A stretch of 64,000 nt of DNA. Origin: Nitratidesulfovibrio termitidis HI1. GTDB taxonomy: Bacteria; Desulfobacterota; Desulfovibrionia; Desulfovibrionales; Desulfovibrionaceae. The translations under genes and the position numbers were made by a program. The stretch lies in assembly GCF_000504305.1 (NCBI RefSeq), contig NZ_KI632512.1, positions 2,230,250-2,294,249 on the forward strand. Reading direction: 5' to 3'. Positions 34,019 through 46,321 of this stretch are shown in pieces. Under the pieces are notes generated by a model. The model was given only the letters and a program-made list of their open reading frames with translations. It did not search any database and had not been told where the DNA came from. How positions within the stretch are numbered: the first letter of the stretch is position 1; each line of letters begins with the position of its first letter.

Positions 34019-36721
34019 GTGTCCACGCATTCGACCCTGGAACAGATGTTCAAGCCCACTTCCGTGACCGTCATCGGAGCCACGGCCACGCCGGGCGAGC
34101 CGGGTTGCGTCATCATGGACAACCTGATGTCCGGCACCTTTCTGGGGCCGGTGCTGCCGGTGAACGAAACGGGCGAGGCCGTGGCGGGCATGCCCGGCCA
34201 CACCGACATCGACACCCTGCCGCTGACGCCGGACCTTGCCATCATCTGTTCCCCGCCCGAGACCATTCCCGGCTACATAGAAGAGCTTGGCAAGCGCGGC
34301 ACCCGCGCCGCCGTGATCATGAGCCGGGGGTTCTTCCGGTTCGACCGTGAACGGCGCGAAGTGCAGAAGGCCGCCCTGCTGCAGGCCGCACGGCGCTGGG
34401 GCGTGCGGGTGCTGGGGCCGAACTGCCTGGGGTTCATCACGCCGTCGGTGGGGGTGAACGCCAGCCTTGCCCCGCGAGAAGCGCTGCCCGGCAAGGTGGC
34501 CTTTCTTTCGCAGTCCGATTCGCTGTTCACGTCCGTTCTGGACTGGGCCACGTCCAAGGGCATCGGCTTTTCGCACTTCATCGCCCTGGGCGACCGCTAC
34601 GACGTGCACTTTCACGACGTGCTGGACTACCTGAACAGCGACGTGAACACCCGCGCCGTGCTGCTGTATATAGAGACCATCGACAGTGCCCGGCGGTTCA
34701 TGTCCGCCGCGCGCGCGCTGGCCCGCAACAAGCCGGTGCTGGTGATCAAGGCGGGCCGGTCGGAGGCGGCGGCCACGGCAGCGGCCGCGCATTCCGGCAT
34801 GCTGCTGGGCGCGGACGAGGTGTACGACGCCGCCTTCCGCCGGGCGGGCATGCTGCGGGTGGCCGACATCGACGCCATGTTCGACACGGTGGAAACGCTG
34901 GCCCTTGCCAAGCCGCTGAAGGGCGACCGGCTGGCCATCCTGACCAACGGCGGCAGCCCCGGCTTTCTGGCCACCGACGCCCTGTTGCAGGGGCGCGGCA
35001 AGCTGGCCGAACTTTCCGACGAAACCTGCCAGGCGCTGGACAACCAGTTGGGGCGCGACTGGTCGTACTGGAACCCGCTTATCGTGCGCAGTTCCGCCGA
35101 TGGGGCCATGTACGCCAAGGCGTTGCAGATATTGCTGGATGACCGGGGCGTGGACGCCGTGCTGGTGATGCACGTGCCCACCTTTTCCATACCCAGCGAC
35201 GACGTGGCGGGCGCGGTTATCGAGGTGGCGCGGCGCAGCCGCAAGCCGGTGCTGACAAGCTGGCTGGGCATAGACGACGCCGCCGGGGCGCGCCGCAAGT
35301 TTGCCGCCGCCGGGGTGCCCAGCCACTTCACCCCGGACAACGCGGTGCGGGCCTTCCTGAACATGGTGGAGTACCGGCGCAACCAGGACACCCTGATGGA
35401 AACGCCGCCCTCGCTGCCGGAGGCCTTCAACCCCGACGTGACGGCGGCGCGCATGGTGGTAAACGATGCGCTGGAGGCCAAGCGCATGCTGCTGACCCCG
35501 GCAGAGGCCCACGCCGTGCTCACCGCCTATGGCATACCCGTGGCCGAGACGCGCCACGTGAAGACCCCGCGCGAGGCCGTGGCCGCAGCAGCACAGATAG
35601 GCTACCCCGTGGCGCTGAAGGTGGAATCGCCCGACGTGCCGCGCACGTCGCTGGCTGGGGGCGTTGCCCTTAACCTGTCCAGCGACGAAGAGGTGATGGA
35701 CGCCGCCCTGTCCACCGCCAACAACGTGTGCGACCAGGTGCCCGGCGCGCGCATGGAAGGCTATGCCGTGCAGCGCATGTGCCGGTTGGCCGGGGCGCAC
35801 GAACTGGCCGTGGAAACCGCCACCGACCCTGTTTTCGGCCCCATCATCCGCTTCGGGCAGGGTGGGTCCATGGCAGAGGTGCTGGCCGACCGCCAGACCG
35901 CCCTGCCGCCGCTGAACATGGGCCTTGCGCAGGAACTGGTATCGCGCACGCGGGTGTACCGCCTGCTGCGCGGCAACGGTCACAAGGACCGCGTGAATCT
36001 GGACGCCGTGCGCCTGCTGCTGTGCAAGGTGTCGCAGCTGATCATCGACATACCCGAAATATTCGAGCTGGAAATTGACCCGCTGTTCGTGGATGCCGAC
36101 GGCGTGGTGGCGCTGGATGCGCACATGCGCATTGCCTGGTCCACCACCACCGGCACGGACCAGCTGGCCATCCGCCCCTACCCGCGTGAGCTTGAGGAAT
36201 GCGTGACCCTGCGCGACGGGCGGCACGTGGACCTTCTGCCCATCCGCCCGGAAGACGAGCCGGAGCACTGGGAATTTGTGGAAAGCCTGTCCGCCGAGGA
36301 CAAGCGGTTCCGCTTTTTCGGCAACGTGGCCAAGCTGCCCCGCGCCGAAATGGTGAAGCTGACCCAGATCGACTACGACCGCGAAATGGCCTTTATCGCC
36401 AAGGGGCCGGATAACGAAGGGGTGGTGCGCACGCTGGGCGTGGTGCGGGCCATGGTCAGCACCGACAACAGCGAGGCGGAATTCGCCGTGGCCGTTCGGT
36501 CCGACCTGAAGCGGCAGGGTCTGGGCAAGCTGCTGATGCAGAAGATCATCCGCTACTGCAAGGCGCGCGGCACCAAGCGCATTGTGGGTGCGGCCCTTGG
36601 TGACAACAAGTCCATGGCCGAACTGGCACGGTCGGTCGGCTTCATCGTCAGCAAGGACTACGACGAGGACATCTGGCAGCTAGACTTGCCGTTGGAGGAT
36701 GGGAAGGGGGAAGGACATTAA
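34019..36721 (+). CDS. Pat-type protein acetyltransferase (NDP-forming CoA ligase-GNAT)
   Basis: A 900-residue protein starting at GTG with GGAAGGGGG upstream. Residues 10-130 are a CoA-binding Rossmann domain (VIGATATPGEPG), 150-460 a succinyl-CoA-ligase-like region (PGKVAFLSQSD, LVIKAGRSEAAATAAAAHSG), 490-690 an ATP-grasp domain (GYPVALKVESPDVPRTSLAGGV) and 720-890 a GNAT domain (VAVRSDLKRQGLGKLLMQKII is its acetyl-CoA loop). The organisation matches the PatZ/Pka family, which acetylates and shuts off acetyl-CoA synthetase. Its position divergent from acs supports that target. A receptor role for another acyl-CoA cannot be excluded. Confidence 0.88.
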   Translation: MSTHSTLEQMFKPTSVTVIGATATPGEPGCVIMDNLMSGTFLGPVLPVNETGEAVAGMPGHTDIDTLPLTPDLAIICSPPETIPGYIEELGKRGTRAAVIMSRGFFRFDRERREVQKAALLQAARRWGVRVLGPNCLGFITPSVGVNASLAPREALPGKVAFLSQSDSLFTSVLDWATSKGIGFSHFIALGDRYDVHFHDVLDYLNSDVNTRAVLLYIETIDSARRFMSAARALARNKPVLVIKAGRSEAAATAAAAHSGMLLGADEVYDAAFRRAGMLRVADIDAMFDTVETLALAKPLKGDRLAILTNGGSPGFLATDALLQGRGKLAELSDETCQALDNQLGRDWSYWNPLIVRSSADGAMYAKALQILLDDRGVDAVLVMHVPTFSIPSDDVAGAVIEVARRSRKPVLTSWLGIDDAAGARRKFAAAGVPSHFTPDNAVRAFLNMVEYRRNQDTLMETPPSLPEAFNPDVTAARMVVNDALEAKRMLLTPAEAHAVLTAYGIPVAETRHVKTPREAVAAAAQIGYPVALKVESPDVPRTSLAGGVALNLSSDEEVMDAALSTANNVCDQVPGARMEGYAVQRMCRLAGAHELAVETATDPVFGPIIRFGQGGSMAEVLADRQTALPPLNMGLAQELVSRTRVYRLLRGNGHKDRVNLDAVRLLLCKVSQLIIDIPEIFELEIDPLFVDADGVVALDAHMRIAWSTTTGTDQLAIRPYPRELEECVTLRDGRHVDLLPIRPEDEPEHWEFVESLSAEDKRFRFFGNVAKLPRAEMVKLTQIDYDREMAFIAKGPDNEGVVRTLGVVRAMVSTDNSEAEFAVAVRSDLKRQGLGKLLMQKIIRYCKARGTKRIVGAALGDNKSMAELARSVGFIVSKDYDEDIWQLDLPLEDGKGEGH

Positions 36722-36736
36722 TGGTGGTTTGCAACA

Positions 36737-38747
36737 CAGTGATGTTGCTCTGAATCAAACTTCGTTAACAGTGATAGACTCGACCATTACACAGGACAGT
36801 CAGTTGTGACTTGACCTGAATCAGACCCCGTTTACAGTCCCCGGCCCGGGCGTCCGTGAACAGGCTGAGTTGTGACTTGACCTGAATCAGACCCCGTTTA
36901 CAGTCCACACCGTCAGCGGCCGGTTGTCCGTGGCGTTGTGACTTGACCTGAATCAGACCCCGTTTACAGTTTGCTGCACGAGCAACGGGTGTGAAAATCT
37001 GTTGTGACTTGACCTGAATCAGACCCCGTTTACAGTCGATCGCGAAGGCTGGTGCCAGGTTGCCCCGTTGTGACTTGACCTGAATCAGACCCCGTTTACA
37101 GTTCGGCGTCGGCCACATCGCATCCCCGGCTTGTTGTGACTTGACCTGAATCAGACCCCGTTTACAGTTTGCTGCACGAGCAACGGGTGTGAAAATCTGT
37201 TGTGACTTGACCTGAATCAGACCCCGTTTACAGTCGATCGCGAAGGCTGGTGCCAGGTTGCCCCGTTGTGACTTGACCTGAATCAGACCCCGTTTACAGT
37301 TCGGCGTCGGCCACATCGCATCCCCGGCTTGTTGTGACTTGACCTGAATCAGACCCCGTTTACAGTGGCCATCCGCACCGGCATAGCGCCCAACTTGTTG
37401 TGACTTGACCTGAATCAGACCCCGTTTACAGTCAGACGCCCCGTGCTCATGAGTTTTACGAGGTTGTGACTTGACCTGAATCAGACCCCGTTTACAGTCC
37501 CTGTACGCCGCCCAGCAGCTGGACCGTTGTGACTTGACCTGAATCAGACCCCGTTTACAGTTTGACCTGGACTATATCCCCCTGGTCGTACGTTGTGACT
37601 TGACCTGAATCAGACCCCGTTTACAGTTGCCGCTGTCCAGTACCGCCGCCGTGACGCGTTGTGACTTGACCTGAATCAGACCCCGTTTACAGTACGGCAC
37701 ACAGTATCCCTCCAGTGGTCTGCGTTGTGACTTGACCTGAATCAGACCCCGTTTACAGTCTTGTCAGCCAGCTGGCGCACCGTGTAGCGGTTGTGACTTG
37801 ACCTGAATCAGACCCCGTTTACAGTGGCCGCAGCCCACGCACGCGAGGGAAATGAGTTGTGACTTGACCTGAATCAGACCCCGTTTACAGTGCCCGTACC
37901 TCGCGGCTGACGTGCTGGCGGGTTGTGACTTGACCTGAATCAGACCCCGTTTACAGTTCCACGGTGATGCCATTCACCTTCCGGGTCGTTGTGACTTGAC
38001 CTGAATCAGACCCCGTTTACAGTCTTCCACGTCGCCCAACAGGTAGCGGATGCGTTGTGACTTGACCTGAATCAGACCCCGTTTACAGTGATAGAGCCAT
38101 CTCACCGTCCGCCAAGCAGGTTGTGACTTGACCTGAATCAGACCCCGTTTACAGTCGCGGCCACCATCACCTCGTAGCACTCGTGGTTGTGACTTGACCT
38201 GAATCAGACCCCGTTTACAGTGCGGGGCGAACACCGCCCCGTCGGCATAGAGTTGTGACTTGACCTGAATCAGACCCCGTTTACAGTCCGGGTACGTGTC
38301 CGTGCCTGTGCCCCCGCGTTGTGACTTGACCTGAATCAGACCCCGTTTACAGTATCGGCAGCGGCGGCTCGAAGCCCTTTGGGGTTGTGACTTGACCTGA
38401 ATCAGACCCCGTTTACAGTATGACACATGGACTCAAGCATCATACGTAGGTTGTGACTTGACCTGAATCAGACCCCGTTTACAGTCGTGGGTGTGAACAC
38501 GCTCCACGCCTTCTAGTTGTGACTTGACCTGAATCAGACCCCGTTTACAGTTCCCCGCCGTCTCGCCGCTGCCGGTCCTGGGTTGTGACTTGACCTGAAT
38601 CAGACCCCGTTTACAGTCACCGGCGAATCGGACATGAACAACTGGTAGTTGTGACTTGACCTGAATCAGACCCCGTTTACAGTTCCAGCCCCGCGCGCTC
38701 GGCTTGCAGCGGTTGTGACTTGACCTGAATCAGACCCCGTTTACAGT
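36737..38747 (+). CRISPR. Type II-C CRISPR array, 31 repeats and 30 spacers
   Basis: Thirty identical 36-nt repeats (first 36803-36838, last 38712-38747) begin GTTGTGACTTGACC and end CCCCGTTTACAGT. A degenerate repeat at 36737-36772 keeps only the 3' half. Spacers are 30 nt except one of 27 (37499-37525) and one of 28 (38684-38711). Three consecutive spacers (36971-37132) recur exactly at 37169-37330, so 27 are unique. TTGACC and TACAGT inside every repeat, 16 nt apart, form a promoter-like pair reading on the plus strand, opposite to the cas genes. With the degenerate repeat at the 5' end, this matches the type II-C pattern known from Neisseria and Campylobacter. Confidence 0.98.
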
Positions 38748-38772
38748 TGAAGGCCGCGCAAGCGGCCTTCAA
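38747..38772. other. Perfect hairpin at the cas-proximal array end
   Basis: TTGAAGGCCGC and GCGGCCTTCAA form an 11-bp stem with a GCAA tetraloop, starting at the last base of the final repeat. There is no U-tract on either strand. It could end pre-crRNA transcription or mark the spacer-acquisition end. Confidence 0.7.
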
Positions 38773-38797
38773 CACTCCAAAAATTCCGTTCAAATCC

Positions 38798-39145
38798 CTA
38801 CAAAAGCCAGAGTTGTTCGGGCGCTTTTTCCACGGGTTTGGCCTTTTTTCCCAAAAACACCTGCATGCGCGCAAACTGCTTGTCGGTCAGGAACATCAAG
38901 CGCACCTCGCCATCGGGCGGCAGTTCGGACTTGATGATCCGTACGGCCCGTTCGCTGCGGCGTTCATCGGGAAACGGCTGGGCATAGACGGAAAGCTGCA
39001 ACCGGGTGAACCCGGCCCCCATCAATATCTTGCGGAACCTGTTGGCCCGCTTGCGTTCTTCTGCCGTCATCACCGGCAAGTCAAACAGGGCTATGCACCA
39101 CATGATGCGGTACCCCGAAAAATCACGCGGCGTCGCCGTCATCAT
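38798..39145 (-). CDS. cas2: CRISPR-associated endonuclease Cas2
   Basis: A 115-residue Cas2 with the usual ferredoxin-like start (GYRIMWCIALFDLP, the Asp of the FDLP motif), then RKILMGAGFTRLQLSVYAQPF and a closing VRLMFLTDKQF strand. It bridges the Cas1 dimers in the spacer-integration complex. The reading frame overlaps the end of cas1 by 23 nt, and the array begins 50 nt further on, so cas9-cas1-cas2 form one minus-strand operon. Confidence 0.95.
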   Translation of the reverse strand: MMTATPRDFSGYRIMWCIALFDLPVMTAEERKRANRFRKILMGAGFTRLQLSVYAQPFPDERRSERAVRIIKSELPPDGEVRLMFLTDKQFARMQVFLGKKAKPVEKAPEQLWLL

Positions 39146-40064
39146 CCAGGCCGTCCATCTGCGGCCCGCAACCGCACAGCGGCTCCACCGGGGGCAGCCA
39201 CAGCCCGCGCCGTGCGCCGCCCACCACGCCCGCCAACGATGAACAGGCCCGCGTGACGATATCCCACAAGGTACGGGCCTCTTCTTCCACCGCGAACCTG
39301 CCGCATACGCCCTCCAGCAGGGCGCGTTTGGCTGCCCCGTCCAGTTCCGCTCCCGGTCCGCATGGCTCCATGCCCGCCACCACCGTATCCACCAGCGGGC
39401 GAAACGGTTCCATCATGTCACTGGCAAGGCAGAACGCATCATAGCGGTTGTGGTGGTGCAGCCCCAAGGACGGATGCAGTCCCGCCCCGCACACGGCACG
39501 CCCCACCATAGCCCGCAATATGGCATAACCATAATTGAGCCGGGCATTCACGCCGCCCGAATCCCTGTCTCGCGTGAAGTCTGAACCGAAACACAGCGGC
39601 CAGTACAATCGGGCGGCCTGCGCCTCTACGTTGTCGGGGTCGCCGGAACGCACCCGCCCCGCCAACGCGGCCAGCCGCGTCCCGTCGCCCCCCAACCGCC
39701 GCACGGCGGCGGCCTGCGCCAACACCTTGGCCCGCACCAGTTGCTGCCACAGCCGCTTGCGCGTGGGCAGGTTCAGGTCCGCTTGCCGTCGAAACCGCTC
39801 TGCCTGCACGCTGTTGTCCGTCAGCGGCAGCAGCATGCCCACGGGTTGATGCCTGGCGTCGCAGCAGATGAACGGCACCCCGGCACCGGCCAACCCTGCC
39901 AACACCGCCTGAGTGTAGGTGACGCCGGGGCAGGAGACCACCACCGCCCCCAGATTGTGCAGGGGTACCGTTTCCTTGCTGTTGCCCACCTCCACCACCA
40001 GCAGGGAATTGCTCACCGATAGCCGGGCCGGTGTGGCCGCGATGTCCAGAATGCGGTCAATCAC
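39123..40064 (-). CDS. cas1: CRISPR-associated integrase Cas1 (type II)
   Basis: A 313-residue type II Cas1. The metal ligands are visible: Glu147 in NVEAQAARLYWP, the His of GLHPSLGLHHHNRYDAF (about 203-205) and Glu219 in SDMMEPFRP. With Cas2 it integrates new spacers. It overlaps the end of cas9 by 8 nt and cas2 by 23 nt, so translation is probably coupled. No cas4 or csn2 is present in the locus, which sets the subtype to II-C. Confidence 0.97.
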   Translation of the reverse strand: MIDRILDIAATPARLSVSNSLLVVEVGNSKETVPLHNLGAVVVSCPGVTYTQAVLAGLAGAGVPFICCDARHQPVGMLLPLTDNSVQAERFRRQADLNLPTRKRLWQQLVRAKVLAQAAAVRRLGGDGTRLAALAGRVRSGDPDNVEAQAARLYWPLCFGSDFTRDRDSGGVNARLNYGYAILRAMVGRAVCGAGLHPSLGLHHHNRYDAFCLASDMMEPFRPLVDTVVAGMEPCGPGAELDGAAKRALLEGVCGRFAVEEEARTLWDIVTRACSSLAGVVGGARRGLWLPPVEPLCGCGPQMDGLDDDGDAA

Positions 40065-43000
40065 GGCAGGGCACCACTGTGCCCAAGGGGGTGATAACCA
40101 CCTTCTCGCAGTCGCCTTGCTGCAATTGCTTCAAACTGAGTTTAAAGAAACCGCCTTCTCTCTTTTTGCCGATTTCTTTTTTCGGTCGCGCGTCTTGAAG
40201 ACGTACCGCTTCCACCTTCAAAACCCCTTGCTCCATGTACACGGAACGCACCCGCAGGTACTCGTCCCGCCCGTCCACGCGCACCCGGATGCATTCGCCC
40301 GAACTCAGCGTGAACAGGAAGCGCGCGCCCTCCGGTCCCTGCCGGTCCACTACCGGCCCCCCCTCACTTTTCTTCCATGCCTCCTTGCGCTGCATGGCCT
40401 CCAGCAGGCTGACCACACCGGGGCATACCCATTCCTCACCCTTCTTGCCCGGCACGGCGTACACCGGGGCGTGGTGGTTACTGGCCGTCTGGCACAGCCT
40501 GCCGTCTTTGCCCACGGACACCGGGGTGCCCGTCTGGAGCACCCGTACGGAACGAACGGGCGGCGGACTGCCGTCATCATCGCGCCGGGGCACGCTGCCC
40601 GTCAGCAGCAGGGCCACACTGGGGGCAAGGCCAGGGTCCAGCAACTTGGCGGTAAAGGTGTTGGCAGCATCCTGCCCCACAGGTTTGCCCTTGCCCACGT
40701 CATCCAGCCGCTTGCGCACGGCATAGCCCACCGCGCCGTCCGGCAGTTCGCGGCGGGCGTAAATGGTCTCGTTGTGCAACGCACCCCGCACCCGGCGCGA
40801 CACCCGGTGCGACGGCAAAATGGACAGCACCACATTGTCCGCCTGCTCCATGAACCCCTCGAACGGCAGCGGCACCATGTCGCGCGGCACAAGCCGATTC
40901 ACCCGGCCCGACTCCGCCTGCGCGGCGGCGCGCTGCAACGCCTGCACCATGCCCCGGCTCGTCGCGGCCACGGCTATGGCGTCCACCGCATGGTGGCGAT
41001 GGTCGCCGCGATTCTTGCCGCCGTCTCCCAGCAGCCTGTTGAGGCCCCACAGGCCGCGCAGCATGGCGGTAATTCCTCCACGGCTGGCCTGTACGTAACG
41101 GTTGGACTGCGGCCCGTAGAGCAGGCCCAGATACTTGCAGGCCAGAACCGAGGCATGGCGGGTGTCGTTCAACTGGCGGTCGGCGAAGTCTTTCCACTCC
41201 TGCATGGTGGGCGCGCGGAACCGGGCCAGCTTGGCCCGGCACGTGGCGGCATCGCCCTGGAAGGCCTCCACCCGCCGCAAGATGGCGTCCATGCGTTCCG
41301 GGTCTGCCGCATAGGCTTCGTGCGGAGTGCGCCCGCGCTTGTGGGCGCGGTTTTCCGGAGCATGGCACAGGGTTTTGTTCAGGAAACTGTCATCGAAACA
41401 GCGGCTGTACGGCAGAATGTGTTCCACATCGAACTGCGGATGCGGGCCGAACAGGTCATTCCACCCGATCATGCGCCCCGTGTACGGGCACTGCCAGCCG
41501 CATTCTTCGGCCAGCAGCAGTTTTTCCACGTCGTTGCGGCGGGGTGTGGCGATGCGTGCGTTGCCTGCTTCCGGCGACATCAGCCGTTCGGCCATTTTTT
41601 CTCGTTGCGATTCCTGCTTCCTGTTCCGTGCGCTGTAGTCAGTCCGTTCCTTGCGCGAACGCTTCATGTCGCGGGCAAGCTCCACGCGGATGACCACCGG
41701 CTTGCCATGTTCGCGCACAATGGCATTGACCACCTTGCGCAGTTCGGTAAGACAGCGCAGCACCACGGGATTGCGCAACGTGGACATGGCCTCCAGCGCA
41801 GGGGGCAAGGTGTCTTGCGGGGCATCGCCATAGCGGGGCGGGTACAGGCACGGGCGCACCGTGCCGTACGATTCGCCCGCGCGCATGGCGGGCAACAGGG
41901 TACGCAACGCCTTCAGGCTGTGGCTGGCATAACCTTTTTCAGGCAGCGGCCTTGCGAACTGTACGGCCTTTTCCTCGCTCAGCCCCCATGCCCTGCGCCC
42001 GCGCCCGCACAACGCGCGGGCATCATCCATGCTGATGATGTCGTGCAGGATCGCCGCGCGCTTTTCCGGAGCAAAATCATCCCAGGCATCTCCGAACACC
42101 GCGTGCATGCGGGCATTCACCCGGTGCCCGAACAATTTCTTTTCGCCGCCCTCCTCAAGGTTGAACCGGCTGTCCTGCGGCAGCCCCAGCAGCTTGCGCA
42201 TGGCCGGAAAGGTCATGGAATCCGCCCGCAGCATGGCATCGCGCAGCCGCGCATACTGTTCCGGGTTGTCCGCCAGCCTGTGCGGCACAAGCTGTTTGTC
42301 GTACCATACAAGGTCGTTCAACCGCTGGAGCAGGCGGAATTCCTGCGCTTCGTCCGCATATTTGGGTGCACGCCGTTCGCCGGGTTCCAACTCGCAGAAC
42401 CCCACAAGGTTTGCCTGCACCTTCAGGGGGCGCTGGTAGAAAATGGCGTCGCACAGGGCGTTGCGGGCAGCCTCGCGCAGATGCGCCGGGTACGGCGCGG
42501 GGTGCAGGGCGCGCTGGCGTTCCCACAGCAGGTCGAATTCCTGTGTCAGCATGTCGCGGCTGGTGTAACGCCCCCGGATACGCGACACGGACGGCGCCAG
42601 CCCGGCAAGGTACTGGCCCAGCGTCTCCGCCCCGGCGGCATCCATTTCCGCCTGAAGGCCATTGATGGACGTCTTGACCTTGCCGAGTTCCTCGTCCTCT
42701 TCCGCCTCCGTGCGGCGGTTGCTGAGAAAGCCCCGCCGCTGGGCAAGCTGGTAGACGGCCCGTCCGAATTCATGGGCGGAAAGCGGGCGGGTCAGCCCAT
42801 CCGCGCGCAGCCGATAAGGGAAGACATGCAGAAAATCCGGGTCGCAAGACAGCCGTTCTGCCTCTGCGGGAGAACAGGAGGCCGCGTGGCGATTCAGCCA
42901 CTGGTCCAGCAGTGCGGCATCCAGAGTGTTGAAAAAGGCATTGCGCGCGTTGGTGTCGCGCACGTTCCCCGGCGGCAGCAGCCCATACTTCTGCATGAGC

Positions 43001-43257
43001 ACAAGAATGCGCTGACGGCGGCGCGCCTTGCGGCGGTGCTGCCTGCGCATCTGCCGGGCGGCGCGGCGGGCGGCGTTGGGGCTTTCCTCCTTGCCGCGCT
43101 GGAATTTGTCCATATCGCCCGCGCACCCCATCTCGAACAGTCGCACCCCGGAACGCAGCACACCCACTGGTTCGCCGTCGTTACCAGCGGCCAGCAACGC
43201 CCAACCGATGGATGCCGCGCCAAGGTCAAGCCCAAGAATGTAAGGAACCTGCTGCAT
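40057..43257 (-). CDS. cas9: Cas9, type II-C, compact (1066 residues)
   Basis: An RNA-guided DNA endonuclease with all catalytic residues visible. RuvC-I is ILGLDLGAASIGWAL (Asp11), RuvC-II VIRVELARDM (Glu526), the HNH domain contains CPYTGR and FDVEHILPYSRCFDDSF (His613), and RuvC-III HHAVDAIAVA (Asp759). The Arg-rich bridge helix (ARRAARQMRRQHRRKARRRQR) follows the first RuvC motif. At 1066 residues it is close to Neisseria Cas9 and much shorter than type II-A enzymes. The C-terminal 300 residues form the wedge and PAM-interacting region; the PAM cannot be read from sequence. The divergent tracrRNA begins about 60 bp upstream. Confidence 0.98.
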   Translation of the reverse strand: MQQVPYILGLDLGAASIGWALLAAGNDGEPVGVLRSGVRLFEMGCAGDMDKFQRGKEESPNAARRAARQMRRQHRRKARRRQRILVLMQKYGLLPPGNVRDTNARNAFFNTLDAALLDQWLNRHAASCSPAEAERLSCDPDFLHVFPYRLRADGLTRPLSAHEFGRAVYQLAQRRGFLSNRRTEAEEDEELGKVKTSINGLQAEMDAAGAETLGQYLAGLAPSVSRIRGRYTSRDMLTQEFDLLWERQRALHPAPYPAHLREAARNALCDAIFYQRPLKVQANLVGFCELEPGERRAPKYADEAQEFRLLQRLNDLVWYDKQLVPHRLADNPEQYARLRDAMLRADSMTFPAMRKLLGLPQDSRFNLEEGGEKKLFGHRVNARMHAVFGDAWDDFAPEKRAAILHDIISMDDARALCGRGRRAWGLSEEKAVQFARPLPEKGYASHSLKALRTLLPAMRAGESYGTVRPCLYPPRYGDAPQDTLPPALEAMSTLRNPVVLRCLTELRKVVNAIVREHGKPVVIRVELARDMKRSRKERTDYSARNRKQESQREKMAERLMSPEAGNARIATPRRNDVEKLLLAEECGWQCPYTGRMIGWNDLFGPHPQFDVEHILPYSRCFDDSFLNKTLCHAPENRAHKRGRTPHEAYAADPERMDAILRRVEAFQGDAATCRAKLARFRAPTMQEWKDFADRQLNDTRHASVLACKYLGLLYGPQSNRYVQASRGGITAMLRGLWGLNRLLGDGGKNRGDHRHHAVDAIAVAATSRGMVQALQRAAAQAESGRVNRLVPRDMVPLPFEGFMEQADNVVLSILPSHRVSRRVRGALHNETIYARRELPDGAVGYAVRKRLDDVGKGKPVGQDAANTFTAKLLDPGLAPSVALLLTGSVPRRDDDGSPPPVRSVRVLQTGTPVSVGKDGRLCQTASNHHAPVYAVPGKKGEEWVCPGVVSLLEAMQRKEAWKKSEGGPVVDRQGPEGARFLFTLSSGECIRVRVDGRDEYLRVRSVYMEQGVLKVEAVRLQDARPKKEIGKKREGGFFKLSLKQLQQGDCEKVVITPLGTVVPCRD

Positions 43258-43285
43258 ATCGTCGTGCCCCTTTTCTTTACGAATG

Positions 43286-43314
43286 TTGACGCTACGTCAA
43301 AAAACACATAATAG
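43286..43314 (+). promoter_or_regulatory. tracrRNA promoter overlapping a palindrome
   Basis: TTGACG (43286-43291) and TAATAG (43309-43314) are 17 nt apart, a strong sigma-70-type promoter firing into the anti-repeat. The -35 box is part of the 15-bp palindrome TTGACGCTACGTCAA (43286-43300), which looks like an operator and also lies in the 5' region of cas9 on the other strand. Confidence 0.75.
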
Positions 43315-43319
43315 CCAAT

Positions 43320-43427
43320 TGTCAAGTCACAACAAGGCTGCCTCTCCCTTCCCTGGAAGGTGACGCGCCGCAGGGTGTTGTTCGCAAGAACGGCCCCATG
43401 GCCCTCCCAGCGGGGGCCTTTTCATTT
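43320..43427 (+). ncRNA. tracrRNA of the type II-C system
   Basis: GTCAAGTCACAAC (43321-43333) is the exact complement of the first 13 bases of the CRISPR repeat, so it is the anti-repeat. It is followed by AAGGCTGCC, like the AAGGCCGUC nexus of Neisseria tracrRNA, then hairpins at 43347-43360 (CCTTCC/GGAAGG) and 43380-43391 (GTTC-GCAA-GAAC). A terminator hairpin GGCCCC/GGGGCC (43392-43418) runs into TTTTCATTTT. A promoter sits at the right distance upstream. The orientation predicts crRNAs transcribed on the plus strand. Ends are estimated from promoter and terminator. Confidence 0.88.
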
Positions 43428-43438
43428 TCTGTCCCGCC

Positions 43439-43472: not shown

Positions 43473-43748
43473 ATGCTGTTCGAGTACGATCCCATAAAAA
43501 GCGACGCCAACAAGGCAAAGCACGGTATCGACTTCGAGGCCGCCAAGGCGCTGTGGGACGACCCGTACCTGATTGAAATTCCCAGCAGGGTAAGCGGCCC
43601 GGAGCCGCGCAGGCTGGCCATCGGAAATCTGGCAGGCCAGTGCTGGGCCGCCGTCATCACTGACCGGGGCCAGGCCGTGCGCATCATATCCGTGCGACGG
43701 GCAAGAAAAGAGGAGGTGGCACTGTATGTCCAAGCAAATTTCCACTGA
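43473..43748 (+). CDS. brnT: BrnT-family ribonuclease toxin
   Basis: A 91-residue toxin with the family's order of motifs: FEYDPIKSDANKAKHGIDFEAAKALWDDP at the N-terminus and VRIISVRRARKEEVALY at the C-terminus. BrnT folds like RelE and cleaves RNA. The downstream antitoxin gene overlaps its end by 23 nt. The pair sits right after the tracrRNA terminator, next to the CRISPR locus. Confidence 0.92.
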   Translation: MLFEYDPIKSDANKAKHGIDFEAAKALWDDPYLIEIPSRVSGPEPRRLAIGNLAGQCWAAVITDRGQAVRIISVRRARKEEVALYVQANFH

Positions 43749-43968
43749 AGAATTCGACCGCCGTTTTGACGAGGGCGAGGACATCACCGCCTTTCTGGAT
43801 ACCAGCGCCATCCGCCATCCCAACCGCGAGAAGAAGACCGTGAACGTGGACTTTCCGCTGTGGATGGTGAACGCGCTGGACAAGGAGGCCAAGATCCTTG
43901 GCGTCTCGCGGCAGGCGCTCATCAAGACGGTGCTCGGCAGGCACTTGCAGGAACGCAAGGGGCAGTAA
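43726..43968 (+). CDS. brnA: BrnA-family antitoxin
   Basis: An 80-residue antitoxin. The N-terminal part (SKQISTEEFDRRFDEGEDITAFLDTS) wraps the toxin. The C-terminal part (KKTVNVDFPLWMVNALDKEAKILGVSRQALIKTVLGRHL) is a ribbon-helix-helix DNA-binding domain that represses the operon. It overlaps brnT, the usual toxin-first order of this family. Confidence 0.92.
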   Translation: MSKQISTEEFDRRFDEGEDITAFLDTSAIRHPNREKKTVNVDFPLWMVNALDKEAKILGVSRQALIKTVLGRHLQERKGQ

Positions 43969-44084: not shown

Positions 44085-44129
44085 GATTTGAAACCCCTTA
44101 CCCCCTAAAAGGGGTCAAGGGGACGGCAG

Positions 44130-44157
44130 CCGTTAGGCGCGCTTGCGAGCCTTACGG
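44130..44157 (+). repeat. REP-like hairpin, copy 3
   Basis: CCGTTAGGC pairs with GCCTTACGG with one T-T mismatch around GCGCTTGCGA. It matches the two hairpins nested in the element near 23.2 kb. Confidence 0.75.
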
Positions 44158-44193
44158 ATGGCGATCGCAACGCGCGCGGCCCCCTTGCCTCAG

Positions 44194-44225
44194 CCGTTGG
44201 TGAGCGCGCAGCGCGAACCTTACGG
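44194..44225 (+). repeat. REP-like hairpin, copy 4 (diverged)
   Basis: CCGTTGG and CCTTACGG close a longer loop containing AGCGCGCAGCGCG. It is preceded by GCCTCAG, as is copy 2. It is weaker than the other three, so family membership is likely but not certain. Confidence 0.55.
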
Positions 44226-44301
44226 ATGAGGACAGCAGAGCTACAGGGGTGCGGGGCAGCGCCCCGCTCTCCCAGACTTACGCCCGCAGTCGCCAGTCCC
44301 C

Positions 44302-45969
44302 CTACAATATGAAATCGTTCGACAGGAAATTCGACCGCCTGTCCCGGATGATGCTGGTCAGAATCTCCTTGTTGGCGTCGCTGCCCTTGGCGGCCACCAG
44401 CGTGCGGATGGAGAAGCAGCGCAGCGCATCGCTGACCGAAAGGGTGCCCTCGGCGGAATCCTTGCGGCCGGTAAAGGGAAAGGTGTCCGGCCCGCGCTGG
44501 CATTGGCTGTTGATGTTCACCCGGCACACCTGGTTGACCATGGGGTCGATCAGCCGGGCCACGTCGTCCGGGTCGTTGCCGAAAATGCTCAGCTGCTGCC
44601 CGTACTGCGACCCCACCACGTAGCGCACTGGCGTTTCTATGTCCGTGAAGGGGATGACGGGTATCACCGGGCCAAACTGCTCCTCGTGGTACACGCGCAT
44701 CTGCGTCGTGGCCGGGCAGACCACCGTGGGGTGGTACAGGGTTTCGGCGTGGGTGCCGCCGCCGCTGTTGGCCACCTTGCCGCCGTGCGCGGCGGCGTCC
44801 CGCACCAGGTCGTCCAGATAGGCGGACTTGCCGGGCACCGGCAGCGGGGTAATGCGCACCCCTTCGTCCCACGGCATGCCGATGCGCAGCTTGCGGATGC
44901 CCTCGTCCATGCGGGCCAGGAATTCATCCAGCCGCTTCTGATGCACGAACAGCATCTTCAGCGCGGTGCAGCGCTGCCCGTTGAACGAGAACGAGCCTTG
45001 CAGCGCCTCGGCCACGGTCAGGTCCATGTCCGCGCAGTCCAGCACTATGCCCGCGTTCTTGGCGTCCAGCCCCAGCACGCAGCGCAGCCGGTGCGGGTGC
45101 GGGTGGGCCAGGCGCAGCGCGTCCGCCGCCGTGCTGGACCCGATGAACGCCAGCACGTTGATGCGGCCCGACGCCATGATGGGCTTCACGATGCGCCGGT
45201 CGCCGTGCAGGATGTTGACCACCCCGGCGGGGAACGCATCGCGGAAGGCTTCCATCAGCGGCGAATACAGCAGCCGCCCCAGGCGCGGCGTTTTCACGAT
45301 GACCGGGTTGCCCATGATCAGCGCGGGCATCAGCGTGCAGAAGGTTTCGTTCAGCGGGTAGTTGTACGGCCCCATGCACAGCACCGGCCCCAGCGGCGCG
45401 CGGCGAATCTGCGCGTAGATGCCTTTCTCTATGACGAAGCGCGACGAGGCGCGGTCCAGATCCTTCAGCGCGTCGATGGTGTCGCGCAGGTACTCCATGG
45501 TGCGGTCGAATTCGCCGCTGGCGTCCTGCCACGACTTGCAGATTTCCCACATCATGATGCGCACCACGTCGGTGCGCCGCGCCGCCATGCGCCGGGCAAA
45601 ATCCTCCACGTGGCGGATGCGCTCGGCCACGCCCATGGTGGGCCATGCGCCCATGCCGTCGGCCCAGGCGCGGTCGGCGGCGTCCACGGCGCGCAGTGCG
45701 GCGGCCTCGTCAAGGATGGGGCAGCGGCCCAACAGGCGCGGGGTAAAGCCGCCCGCAGCGTCGGTCTCGCCAATGGGCGAAAATACCTGCTGCATCTCGC
45801 CGGGCCATTCCTCCAGCTTGCCGTCGATAAGGCAGGTGCGCTGCTCTATGGGCGCAAAGGCGTGGGCGGCTTCCGGCAGAGGCTGCCCGGCCACGGGAAA
45901 CAGCCCGCGCAGGCTATCGGCGGTATGGACGGCGGGGGCAGCAGTCGAGGCGGTCGGCTGGGACGACAT
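44302..45969 (-). CDS. Aldehyde dehydrogenase, GapN-like (NADP-dependent GAPDH family)
   Basis: A 555-residue enzyme starting at the ATG behind AAGGAGTTTCGC. YNYPLNETFCTLMPALIMGNPVIVK is the cofactor-binding region, and FNGQRCTALKMLFV holds the catalytic Cys. In place of the usual ELGGK motif with the general-base Glu it has LGLDAKN, a variant seen in part of the GapN group. Non-phosphorylating glyceraldehyde-3-phosphate oxidation to 3-phosphoglycerate with NADP is the expected reaction; other aldehyde substrates remain possible. About 60 extra N-terminal residues precede the core. It is divergent from the LuxR-type regulator. Confidence 0.8.
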   Translation of the reverse strand: MSSQPTASTAAPAVHTADSLRGLFPVAGQPLPEAAHAFAPIEQRTCLIDGKLEEWPGEMQQVFSPIGETDAAGGFTPRLLGRCPILDEAAALRAVDAADRAWADGMGAWPTMGVAERIRHVEDFARRMAARRTDVVRIMMWEICKSWQDASGEFDRTMEYLRDTIDALKDLDRASSRFVIEKGIYAQIRRAPLGPVLCMGPYNYPLNETFCTLMPALIMGNPVIVKTPRLGRLLYSPLMEAFRDAFPAGVVNILHGDRRIVKPIMASGRINVLAFIGSSTAADALRLAHPHPHRLRCVLGLDAKNAGIVLDCADMDLTVAEALQGSFSFNGQRCTALKMLFVHQKRLDEFLARMDEGIRKLRIGMPWDEGVRITPLPVPGKSAYLDDLVRDAAAHGGKVANSGGGTHAETLYHPTVVCPATTQMRVYHEEQFGPVIPVIPFTDIETPVRYVVGSQYGQQLSIFGNDPDDVARLIDPMVNQVCRVNINSQCQRGPDTFPFTGRKDSAEGTLSVSDALRCFSIRTLVAAKGSDANKEILTSIIRDRRSNFLSNDFIL

Positions 45970-46321
45970 GCGAAACTCCTTCATCCGGCGGCGGGCCGGG
46001 CTGTGGGATGGCGGCGATGGTTACGGCACGGCGCGGAACGGTCGGCAACGGTACAGGGCGGCACAGAAGCGCGGGCCGGACCATGCCGCGACATGGGACC
46101 ACCATAACAGGGTTGCGCACCGATGGCAGCAGGGAAGGCGGGGCAGGGGTGATACGGGGAGTGACGAAAGCCGCCAACGGGCCGTCATCTGGACGTCTCA
46201 CAGCACAAGCAACACACCGCAACAGCATCTCAATCCCTGACATTCTGGCAAATGAACGACGCATTGCCACCGCATCATCCATGCTTGCCAAACAGCACAG
46301 CGGGTAGTACCACACTGCACA
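45970..46321. other. Divergent intergenic region
   Basis: No gene is seen. The right third is AT-richer and contains GCATTGCCACCGCATCAT (46261-46278), which shares the GCATTGC and GCATCAT words with the inverted repeat at 47931, so it may hold a regulator site. Confidence 0.4.

What the first reader, a model, noticed from the sequence alone, without database searches (positions are those of the whole stretch)
36737..43427. Complete type II-C CRISPR-Cas locus with compact Cas9 in a sulfate reducer
Cas9 (1066 residues, all catalytic residues visible), Cas1, Cas2, array and tracrRNA are all present and look functional. Desulfovibrio genomes that I recall mostly carry type I-C systems, so this is likely a transferred locus. 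The PAM-interacting domain is unlike any I can name.
Basis: partly seen in the sequence, partly recalled or inferred. Interest (0 to 1): 0.65.

Follow-up and report, generated by a model that had tools for sequence, protein, structure and literature searches.

The report
Cas9 immune locus in defence slot
A sulfate-reducing bacterium carries a complete and apparently intact Cas9 immune system, ordinary in its kind but from a little-studied branch, sitting at a spot in the chromosome where its relatives keep other foreign, partly anti-phage gene cassettes.

Summary
Window 36737-43427 is an intact type II-C CRISPR-Cas locus: cas9 (1066 aa, catalytic residues present), cas1, cas2, an array of 31 repeats and 30 spacers (27 unique), and a divergent predicted tracrRNA whose 13-nt anti-repeat is the only copy of the repeat's 5' end outside the array in the window. 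The host has dsrA and also type I-C and I-E genes.

It is a new member of a known kind. Repeats carry promoter-like -35/-10 boxes and the oldest repeat is degenerate, as published for II-C. The Cas9 belongs to an SH-100 clade spread over nine named phyla and more; its nearest solved structure is Nme1Cas9 (27% identity), and its PAM-interacting region has the ordinary compact-Cas9 fold.

(1) The locus fills a variable slot between two conserved genes. One congener has the same locus; five others have different AT-rich cassettes there: GAPS4 in one, restriction-modification-like genes in another, an ATPase in a third, unassigned genes in two. (2) One good and two tentative protospacers lie in conjugation, tail-fibre and pilus genes; their 3' flanks suggest NGNCYAY, weakly.

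Transfer is likely; direction and donor are unproven. Nothing was tested at the bench.

The parts
36737..36772 (+). oldest, degenerate repeat (cas2-distal end, first in the direction of crRNA transcription)
   Evidence: 14 of 36 mismatches; the last 6 bases read AACAGT
36737..38747 (+). CRISPR array, 31 repeats of 36 nt, 30 spacers (27 unique), crRNA strand +
   Evidence: strand set by the anti-repeat
36935..37330 (+). tandem duplication of a block of three spacers (198 bp twice)
   Evidence: 100% identity of 36935-37132 and 37133-37330
36773..36802 (+). spacer 1, matches a TraK-like conjugation gene in congener G022 (28 of 30)
37628..37657 (+). spacer 14, tentative match to tail-fibre genes (4-5 mismatches)
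38712..38747 (+). cas2-proximal repeat, predicted site of spacer acquisition
   Evidence: intact repeat at the end opposite the degenerate one; rule from passages of PMC12080349
38748..38771 (+). perfect 10-bp inverted repeat next to the newest repeat
   Evidence: read from the sequence; the same in G021
38798..39145 (-). cas2 (true start may be the ATG at residue 15)
   Evidence: TIGR01573 matches from residue 15
39123..40064 (-). cas1, type II
   Evidence: TIGR03639 245 bits
40057..43257 (-). cas9, 1066 aa
   Evidence: TIGR01865 588 bits; model pLDDT 86; Nme1Cas9 6jdv_A Z 32.2, rmsd 6.5, 903 aligned
43286..43314 (+). predicted tracrRNA promoter TTGACG-N17-TAATAG
   Evidence: read from the sequence; not tested
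43317..43428 (+). predicted tracrRNA, divergent from cas9; anti-repeat 43321-43333, terminator 43400-43428
   Evidence: the same arrangement upstream of cas9 in five relatives
43473..43968 (+). flanking BrnT/BrnA toxin-antitoxin pair, part of the variable slot
   Evidence: PF04365 and NF047399; BrnT partial or absent in five congeners
34019..36721 (+). left edge of the slot: acyl-CoA synthetase/GNAT protein gene (called 'pat' here)
   Evidence: similarity in five congeners ends at 36699-36714
44302..45984 (-). right edge of the slot: aldehyde dehydrogenase gene
   Evidence: PF00171; DNA match in all seven congeners, in G024 only in part

Best explanation
A complete, probably working type II-C adaptive immune system. 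Inferred mechanism: Cas1-Cas2 insert new 30-nt spacers at the cas2-proximal repeat. Each repeat carries a -35/-10-like promoter that starts a short crRNA running towards cas2. The crRNA's repeat pairs with the tracrRNA through a 13-bp duplex. Cas9 with this guide cuts matching plasmid and phage DNA that carries a 3' PAM. The locus occupies a chromosomal slot in which this genus exchanges defence-like cassettes. Shown here: the genes, array, anti-repeat, protein family, predicted fold, the slot, and one good protospacer. Inferred: expression, processing, cutting, PAM and direction of transfer.
For: Family scores; catalytic residues; anti-repeat unique outside the array in the window; predicted fold. 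Repeat positions 31, 32, 34 and 36 (T, A, A, T) are invariant in 24 of 24 clade repeats; mean match to TTGACA/TATAAT 7.7 of 12, against 2.8 in shuffles. 0 of 18 array spacers of G021 are shared with the window, which points to turnover since the two split. Spacer 1 matches a conjugation gene of a congener at 28 of 30, E 8.6e-5. Slot.
Against: No expression or activity data. 25 of 27 unique spacers have no accepted match, and the phage and plasmid collections gave nothing above chance. A control is sobering: a G021 spacer has a 27-of-30 match, E 1.8e-4, at a G175 gene of the heavy-metal-resistance type, so a low E-value alone does not prove a protospacer. Two own-genome tail-fibre genes lie within 4-5 mismatches of spacer 14 with flanks like the proposed PAM, which either reflects mismatch intolerance or argues against strong activity. 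The repeat-tracrRNA duplex energy did not stand clear of shuffled repeats for the window, the tracrRNA fold is not exceptional (z -1.46), and Rfam gave no tracrRNA match.
Confidence: 0.9

Rival explanations
1. The locus is ancestral to the genus (or the family) and was lost or replaced in the other species, rather than recently acquired.
For: Family Cas9s group in the tree with support 86-90. Part of brnT persists in G020 and G023, and brnA in G020, G023 and in part in G025, which suggests that the slot once held BrnTA and was overwritten. Cas9 GC (0.649) is close to the window's (0.664).
Against: 2 of 8 genus genomes and 6 of 288 family genomes have it. In the five other slots no exact copy of the repeat's first 13 bases on either strand and no cas protein match at E 1e-3. 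GC3 of cas9, cas1 and cas2 is 0.76-0.81 against 0.87-0.90 in the neighbouring acs, pat and aldh genes.
Confidence: 0.3
2. The locus is intact in sequence but silent or idle in this host, which also has I-C and I-E genes.
For: Tail-fibre genes near-matching spacer 14 coexist with it; few spacers have a recognisable target.
Against: Open frames, conserved residues, 30 identical repeats, and no spacer shared with the 96%-identical sister system in G021.
Confidence: 0.15
3. The Cas9 has a PAM-interacting domain of a new fold (a reading of the first reader's remark).
For: Low sequence identity in that region (12-20% to solved Cas9s).
Against: Foldseek and VIA-align match residues 812-1066 to the C-terminal part of Nme1/Nme2, ThermoCas9, GeoCas9 and others (best Z 11.5, rmsd 5.9, 215 aligned).
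Confidence: 0.05

Closest known systems
Neisseria meningitidis type II-C system (Nme1Cas9)
   Same: compact Cas9; best structural match over residues 3-1066 (Z 32.2, rmsd 6.5, 903 aligned, 27% identity); promoter inside each repeat (reported in passages of PMC13187072 and PMC7038990)
   Different: 27% identity; the window's repeat also has a -35-like TTGACC at positions 9-14 (that the Nme repeat lacks one is recalled); PAM likely different (inference)
Clostridium cellulolyticum II-C system (CcCas9; passages of PMC7038990)
   Same: tracrRNA upstream of the cas genes, array transcribed opposite to them, promoter-like 3' end of the repeat
   Different: CcCas9 was not compared here by sequence
Cas9s of Acidobacteriota, Planctomycetota, Hydrogenedentes, Desulfovibrionaceae and others
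   Same: long similarity to the window Cas9, cas1 and cas2 next to cas9 in most of the loci that extend far enough, 36-nt repeats ending in TANANT
   Different: the four Desulfovibrionaceae repeats counted have TTGAC at positions 9-13; 0 of the other 20 clade repeats counted do, though L098, left out for a short consensus, does

Membership tests
CRISPR-Cas type II-C | Cas9 with RuvC and HNH nuclease motifs | tested here: met
   TIGR01865, HNH_4, RuvC_III; residues
CRISPR-Cas type II-C | type II Cas1 and a Cas2 next to cas9 | tested here: met
   TIGR03639, TIGR01573
CRISPR-Cas type II-C | no csn2 and no cas4 in the locus | tested here: met
   with the starts listed, cas9/cas1 and cas1/cas2 overlap, 50 bp lie between cas2 and the array, and the tracrRNA region lies upstream of cas9, so no further gene fits inside; the rest of the genome was not searched for them
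CRISPR-Cas type II-C | tracrRNA with an anti-repeat | tested here: met
   13 of 13 complementary bases, unique outside the array in the window; transcription not tested; duplex energy not outside shuffles
CRISPR-Cas type II-C | Cas9 groups with II-C Cas9s | tested here: inconclusive
   the best solved sequence is Nme1Cas9 (234 bits), while the II-A SpCas9 scores about 21-22 bits; the tree held no II-A or II-B reference
CRISPR-Cas type II-C | promoter inside each repeat, oldest repeat degenerate, acquisition at the cas2-proximal end | tested here: inconclusive
   sequence features present; transcription and acquisition not testable with these tools
CRISPR-Cas type II-C | RNA-guided DNA cleavage next to a 3' PAM | not testable with these tools
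   three candidate protospacers only

The most novel reading that the evidence does not exclude
The interval between the acyl-CoA synthetase/GNAT gene and the aldehyde dehydrogenase gene is a genus-wide hotspot for defence cassettes. It holds this II-C system in two species, GAPS4 in another, restriction-modification-like genes in another, and two or three uncharacterised cassettes that are therefore candidate new anti-phage systems. The resident Cas9 belongs to a family lineage with full -35/-10 promoters in every repeat and a short N4YAY-type (NGNCYAY) PAM.
Probability: 0.3. Interest if true: 0.5.

Novelty: new member of a known kind. Interest (0 to 1): 0.35.

Why it matters
It gives a compact Cas9 from a broad clade in which my few literature searches showed no characterised member, with an intact tracrRNA region, ready for a PAM assay. 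It also gives an anchored chromosomal slot in a sulfate reducer where cassettes can be compared across species, so that unknown neighbours become testable as defence genes. For the field at large it is an ordinary II-C system.

Tried and rejected
Led nowhere. (a) Exact 20-nt spacer seeds in IMG/VR: 0 hits for 6 of 6 spacers tried, out of 27. A seventh scan, with spacer 14's variable positions as N, found 5 contigs, but that pattern was built from hits already seen. (b) Phage and plasmid collections with the own array and the G021 array: best E 0.4, taken as chance. (c) Cas9 in IMG/VR: none confirmed. (d) Rfam: nothing relevant. (e) The full maximum-likelihood tree did not finish; FastTree was used instead.

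Considered and rejected as protospacers. Spacer 28 has 23-base matches in 7 of 8 genus genomes (6-7 mismatches over the whole spacer in the 6 that I compared). Spacer 17 sites in several family genomes (5-6 mismatches) lie, in the one examined, in a gene with 4Fe-4S domains (L052); two of them carry GGGCCAT as 3' flank, so the PAM guess can arise by chance. A G175 site matches a G021 spacer at 27 of 30 (E 1.8e-4), but the open frame there with a family match is of the LTXXQ/metal-resistance type, no phage family matches, and the flank TTGCCGAA does not fit; a second site of that spacer, in G192, lies in a PEP-utilising enzyme gene. A G265 site matches spacer 14 with 4 mismatches inside an AraC-type regulator gene, flank TGGCCCCC. 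Spacer 30 has 6-mismatch sites in the same stretches as spacer 14's, flank GCTTGTAG, which does not fit; not counted. Contexts of most other hits were not examined. A new fold for the PAM-interacting domain was rejected.

Papers. PMC13187072, PMC7038990, PMC9174804: passages only. PMC12080349: abstract, outline and passages. PMC10309648, PMC6079278, PMC10640760, PMC12026748, PMC13043603, PMC10146906: search listing only. Zhang 2013 and Dugar 2013: known only through those papers and recall.
Full report
What is there. The window lies at 2230250-2294249 of a single-contig genome of 4,257,954 bases that has dsrA over its curated cut-off (660 bits against 393), so 'sulfate reducer' is supported. 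On the minus strand lie cas9, cas1 and cas2, overlapping by a few bases with the starts listed; 50 bp downstream of cas2 is an array of 31 repeats; upstream of cas9, on the plus strand, is the predicted tracrRNA. The catalytic residues are present. Of 30 spacers 27 are unique, because a block of three is duplicated.

Polarity and expression (inferred). The anti-repeat at 43321-43333 fixes the plus strand as the crRNA strand. Every intact repeat reads GTTGTGAC-TTGACC-N16-TACAGT, which resembles a sigma-70 promoter with a 16-base spacer. I compared 51 repeats of 36 nt: 50 from 85 scanned loci and the window's, which I added by hand (loci without an array or with a consensus of other length were dropped, a few 37-nt ones trimmed by one base; L022 duplicates L084 and stands in the other group). 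24 belong to this Cas9's clade (22 by the tree; L026 and L116 were not in it and were assigned by me). Positions 31, 32, 34 and 36 are T, A, A, T in 24 of 24, and the mean match to TTGACA/TATAAT is 7.7 of 12 against 2.8 in shuffled repeats (largest of 2000: 3.9). Shuffling single repeats is a weak null, because repeats share descent. TTGAC at positions 9-13 is found in 4 of 4 Desulfovibrionaceae repeats counted (window, G003 as L084, G135 as L023, G115 as L026) and in 0 of the other 20 clade repeats; L098, dropped for its short consensus, has it too, and so do at least two repeats outside the clade (L123, L132). Promoters inside II-C repeats, acquisition at the last repeat, and a mutated first repeat are in print (passages of PMC12080349; of PMC13187072; of PMC7038990). 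In G115 and G135 the degenerate first repeat has lost its 5' pairing part but keeps a -35/-10-like remainder, as expected if it only serves as promoter; in the window the first repeat ends AACAGT, a weaker fit.

tracrRNA. All six loci looked at (window, G021, G003, G135, G015, G115) have an anti-repeat upstream of cas9 in divergent orientation, each preceded by a TTGAC-type box. The window's predicted transcript 43317-43430 folds into three hairpins (-41.6 kcal/mol, z -1.46, not exceptional). The repeat-tracrRNA duplex energy of the window (-24.7) is not outside the shuffled range (mean -21.8, lowest -30.7), so the argument rests on the exact 13-base complement, found nowhere else in the window outside the array.

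The Cas9 and its kin. In the family, 32 of 288 genomes have some Cas9 match; 6 of 288 have this Cas9 or a close relative (window; G021 96%; G003 46%; G135, G015 and G115 at 43-44%, the last split over two contigs). A FastTree of 81 rows puts the window in a 35-row clade (SH 100) with Acidobacteriota 11, Planctomycetota 8, Thermodesulfobacteriota 2, six further named phyla with one row each, and 8 rows without a phylum label, Hydrogenedentes among them. Inside it the window, G021, L084 (G003), L088 (G015), L023 (G135) and one unnamed bacterium form a fork of support 90, not a starred one. Rows that were incomplete, lacked a start, or duplicated another were left out. The predicted structure (pLDDT 86.2, pTM 0.71) aligns end to end with Nme1Cas9 (6jdv_A, Z 32.2, rmsd 6.5, 903 aligned, 27% identity). 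The C-terminal 255 residues folded alone (pLDDT 86.9) match the same region of Nme2, ThermoCas9, GeoCas9 and others (Z 11.5 at best, rmsd 5.9, 215 aligned). The domain is divergent in sequence, ordinary in fold.

Targets. Spacer 1, the oldest, matches 28 of 30 bases in congener G022 (E 8.6e-5), inside a gene with a TraK_N domain among TrbC, TrbI and TraN genes. Spacer 14 matches, with 4-5 mismatches, tail-fibre genes in G022 and in the window's own genome (two copies), the same sequence in G021, and 5 IMG/VR contigs (family scans were made for G022 and the two own copies only; best E 0.02). A G021 spacer matches with 4 mismatches a T2SSF-type gene beside TrbI, shufflon and TcpQ genes in G025 (E 0.008). 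The last two are tentative: hits in plainly chromosomal genes reach E 1.8e-4 (G175, metal-resistance type), 0.003 (G192, PEP-utilising enzyme) and 0.0045 (G265, AraC regulator) in the same family-wide searches. Spacer 1 stands out by lying in a congener and in a conjugation gene. The 3' flanks of the three are AGTCTACA, TGRCCATC and GGGCCATC, compatible with NGNCYAY. That motif occurs at 0.56% of positions in the window, but two sites of a hit judged to be chance also fit it. Screening reversed spacers on the eight fetched stretches gave 0 hits at 6 or fewer mismatches, the real spacers 5, of which 2 are not accepted. The PAM guess is weak.

The slot. In the five congeners whose slot could be read across (G020, G022, G023, G025, G026), similarity stops at the end of the left-hand gene (window 36699-36714) and resumes between 43624 and 44302. 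G021 has the same CRISPR locus, split over two contigs; G024 (75% complete) has the two flanks on different contigs and cannot be read. The five other slots show no exact copy of the repeat's first 13 bases on either strand and no cas protein match at E 1e-3 (one at E 0.98), but different genes of 39-40% GC against 66% for the window. G023: GapS4a and GapS4b over their curated cut-offs, plus a NA37-type gene. G026: a GHKL ATPase with sub-cut-off similarity to BbrUII/HgiDII restriction enzymes, and a protein matching type II methyltransferase models. G022: an Sll1717-family P-loop ATPase with a sub-cut-off match to an anti-phage model. G020 and G025: no informative match. The cassettes show no clear relation to one another (one weak hit, E 0.03-0.07, between a G023 and a G026 protein). 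BrnT is partial or absent in these five. The CRISPR locus itself is not AT-rich (cas9 65%), but GC3 is 0.76-0.81 against 0.87-0.90 in acs, pat and aldh. I read this as a defence hotspot; with three of five other cassettes only weakly or not assigned, that is an inference.

Other CRISPR genes in the host. Cas5d (type I-C) at 2538479 with a Cas1 at 2542630 (its subtype not tested), and Cas1e, Cas2e and a sub-cut-off Cas6e at about 865000.

In print. Searches for Desulfovibrio, Desulfovibrionaceae or Nitratidesulfovibrio with Cas9, II-C or CRISPR returned 0, 0, 2, 28 (10 listed), 3 and 0 papers; nothing on this system shows in the listings. One search found one review with 'Cas9 orthologs', 'type II-C' and 'Planctomycet', which I did not read. 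The library lacks most subscription papers, so this is no proof of absence.

Verdict. A real, intact II-C system: a new member of a known kind from a broad clade in which these searches showed no characterised member. The variable slot around it is the part I would follow up.

Noticed in passing
L024 8300-11801 (G015:C30): A full-length Cas9 of this clade with a tracrRNA-like anti-repeat but no cas1, cas2 or array in the 20 kb fetched; its 15-base anti-repeat start occurs once in that genome, plus one 2-mismatch site. An apparently orphan Cas9; an array on missing sequence is not excluded (97% complete).
   Followed up: partly
L025 10780-12882 and L026 9061-10170 (G115): The Cas9 of G115 is split over two contig ends, with a stop before the first contig ends; an insertion or an assembly break. 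Left as it is.
   Followed up: no
L207 2563-4307 and L206 1649-2716 (slots of G020 and G025): AT-rich cassettes without informative family matches: a 333-aa protein with a 271-aa protein that has a very weak nucleotidyltransferase match (G020), and a 355-aa protein (G025); candidates for unknown defence genes by position.
   Followed up: partly
L194 314-2251 (own genome, about 865000): Cas6e-like (below cut-off), Cas1e and Cas2e genes of type I-E; with I-C and II-C genes the genome holds three CRISPR types.
   Followed up: partly
L022 array (G003): Two spacers (numbers 3 and 11) differ by one base, suggesting two captures from variants of one target.
   Followed up: no
window about 44100-44275: Short stretches beside the 3' end of the aldehyde dehydrogenase gene match dozens of places in the genus genomes, a dispersed repeat family.
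   Followed up: no
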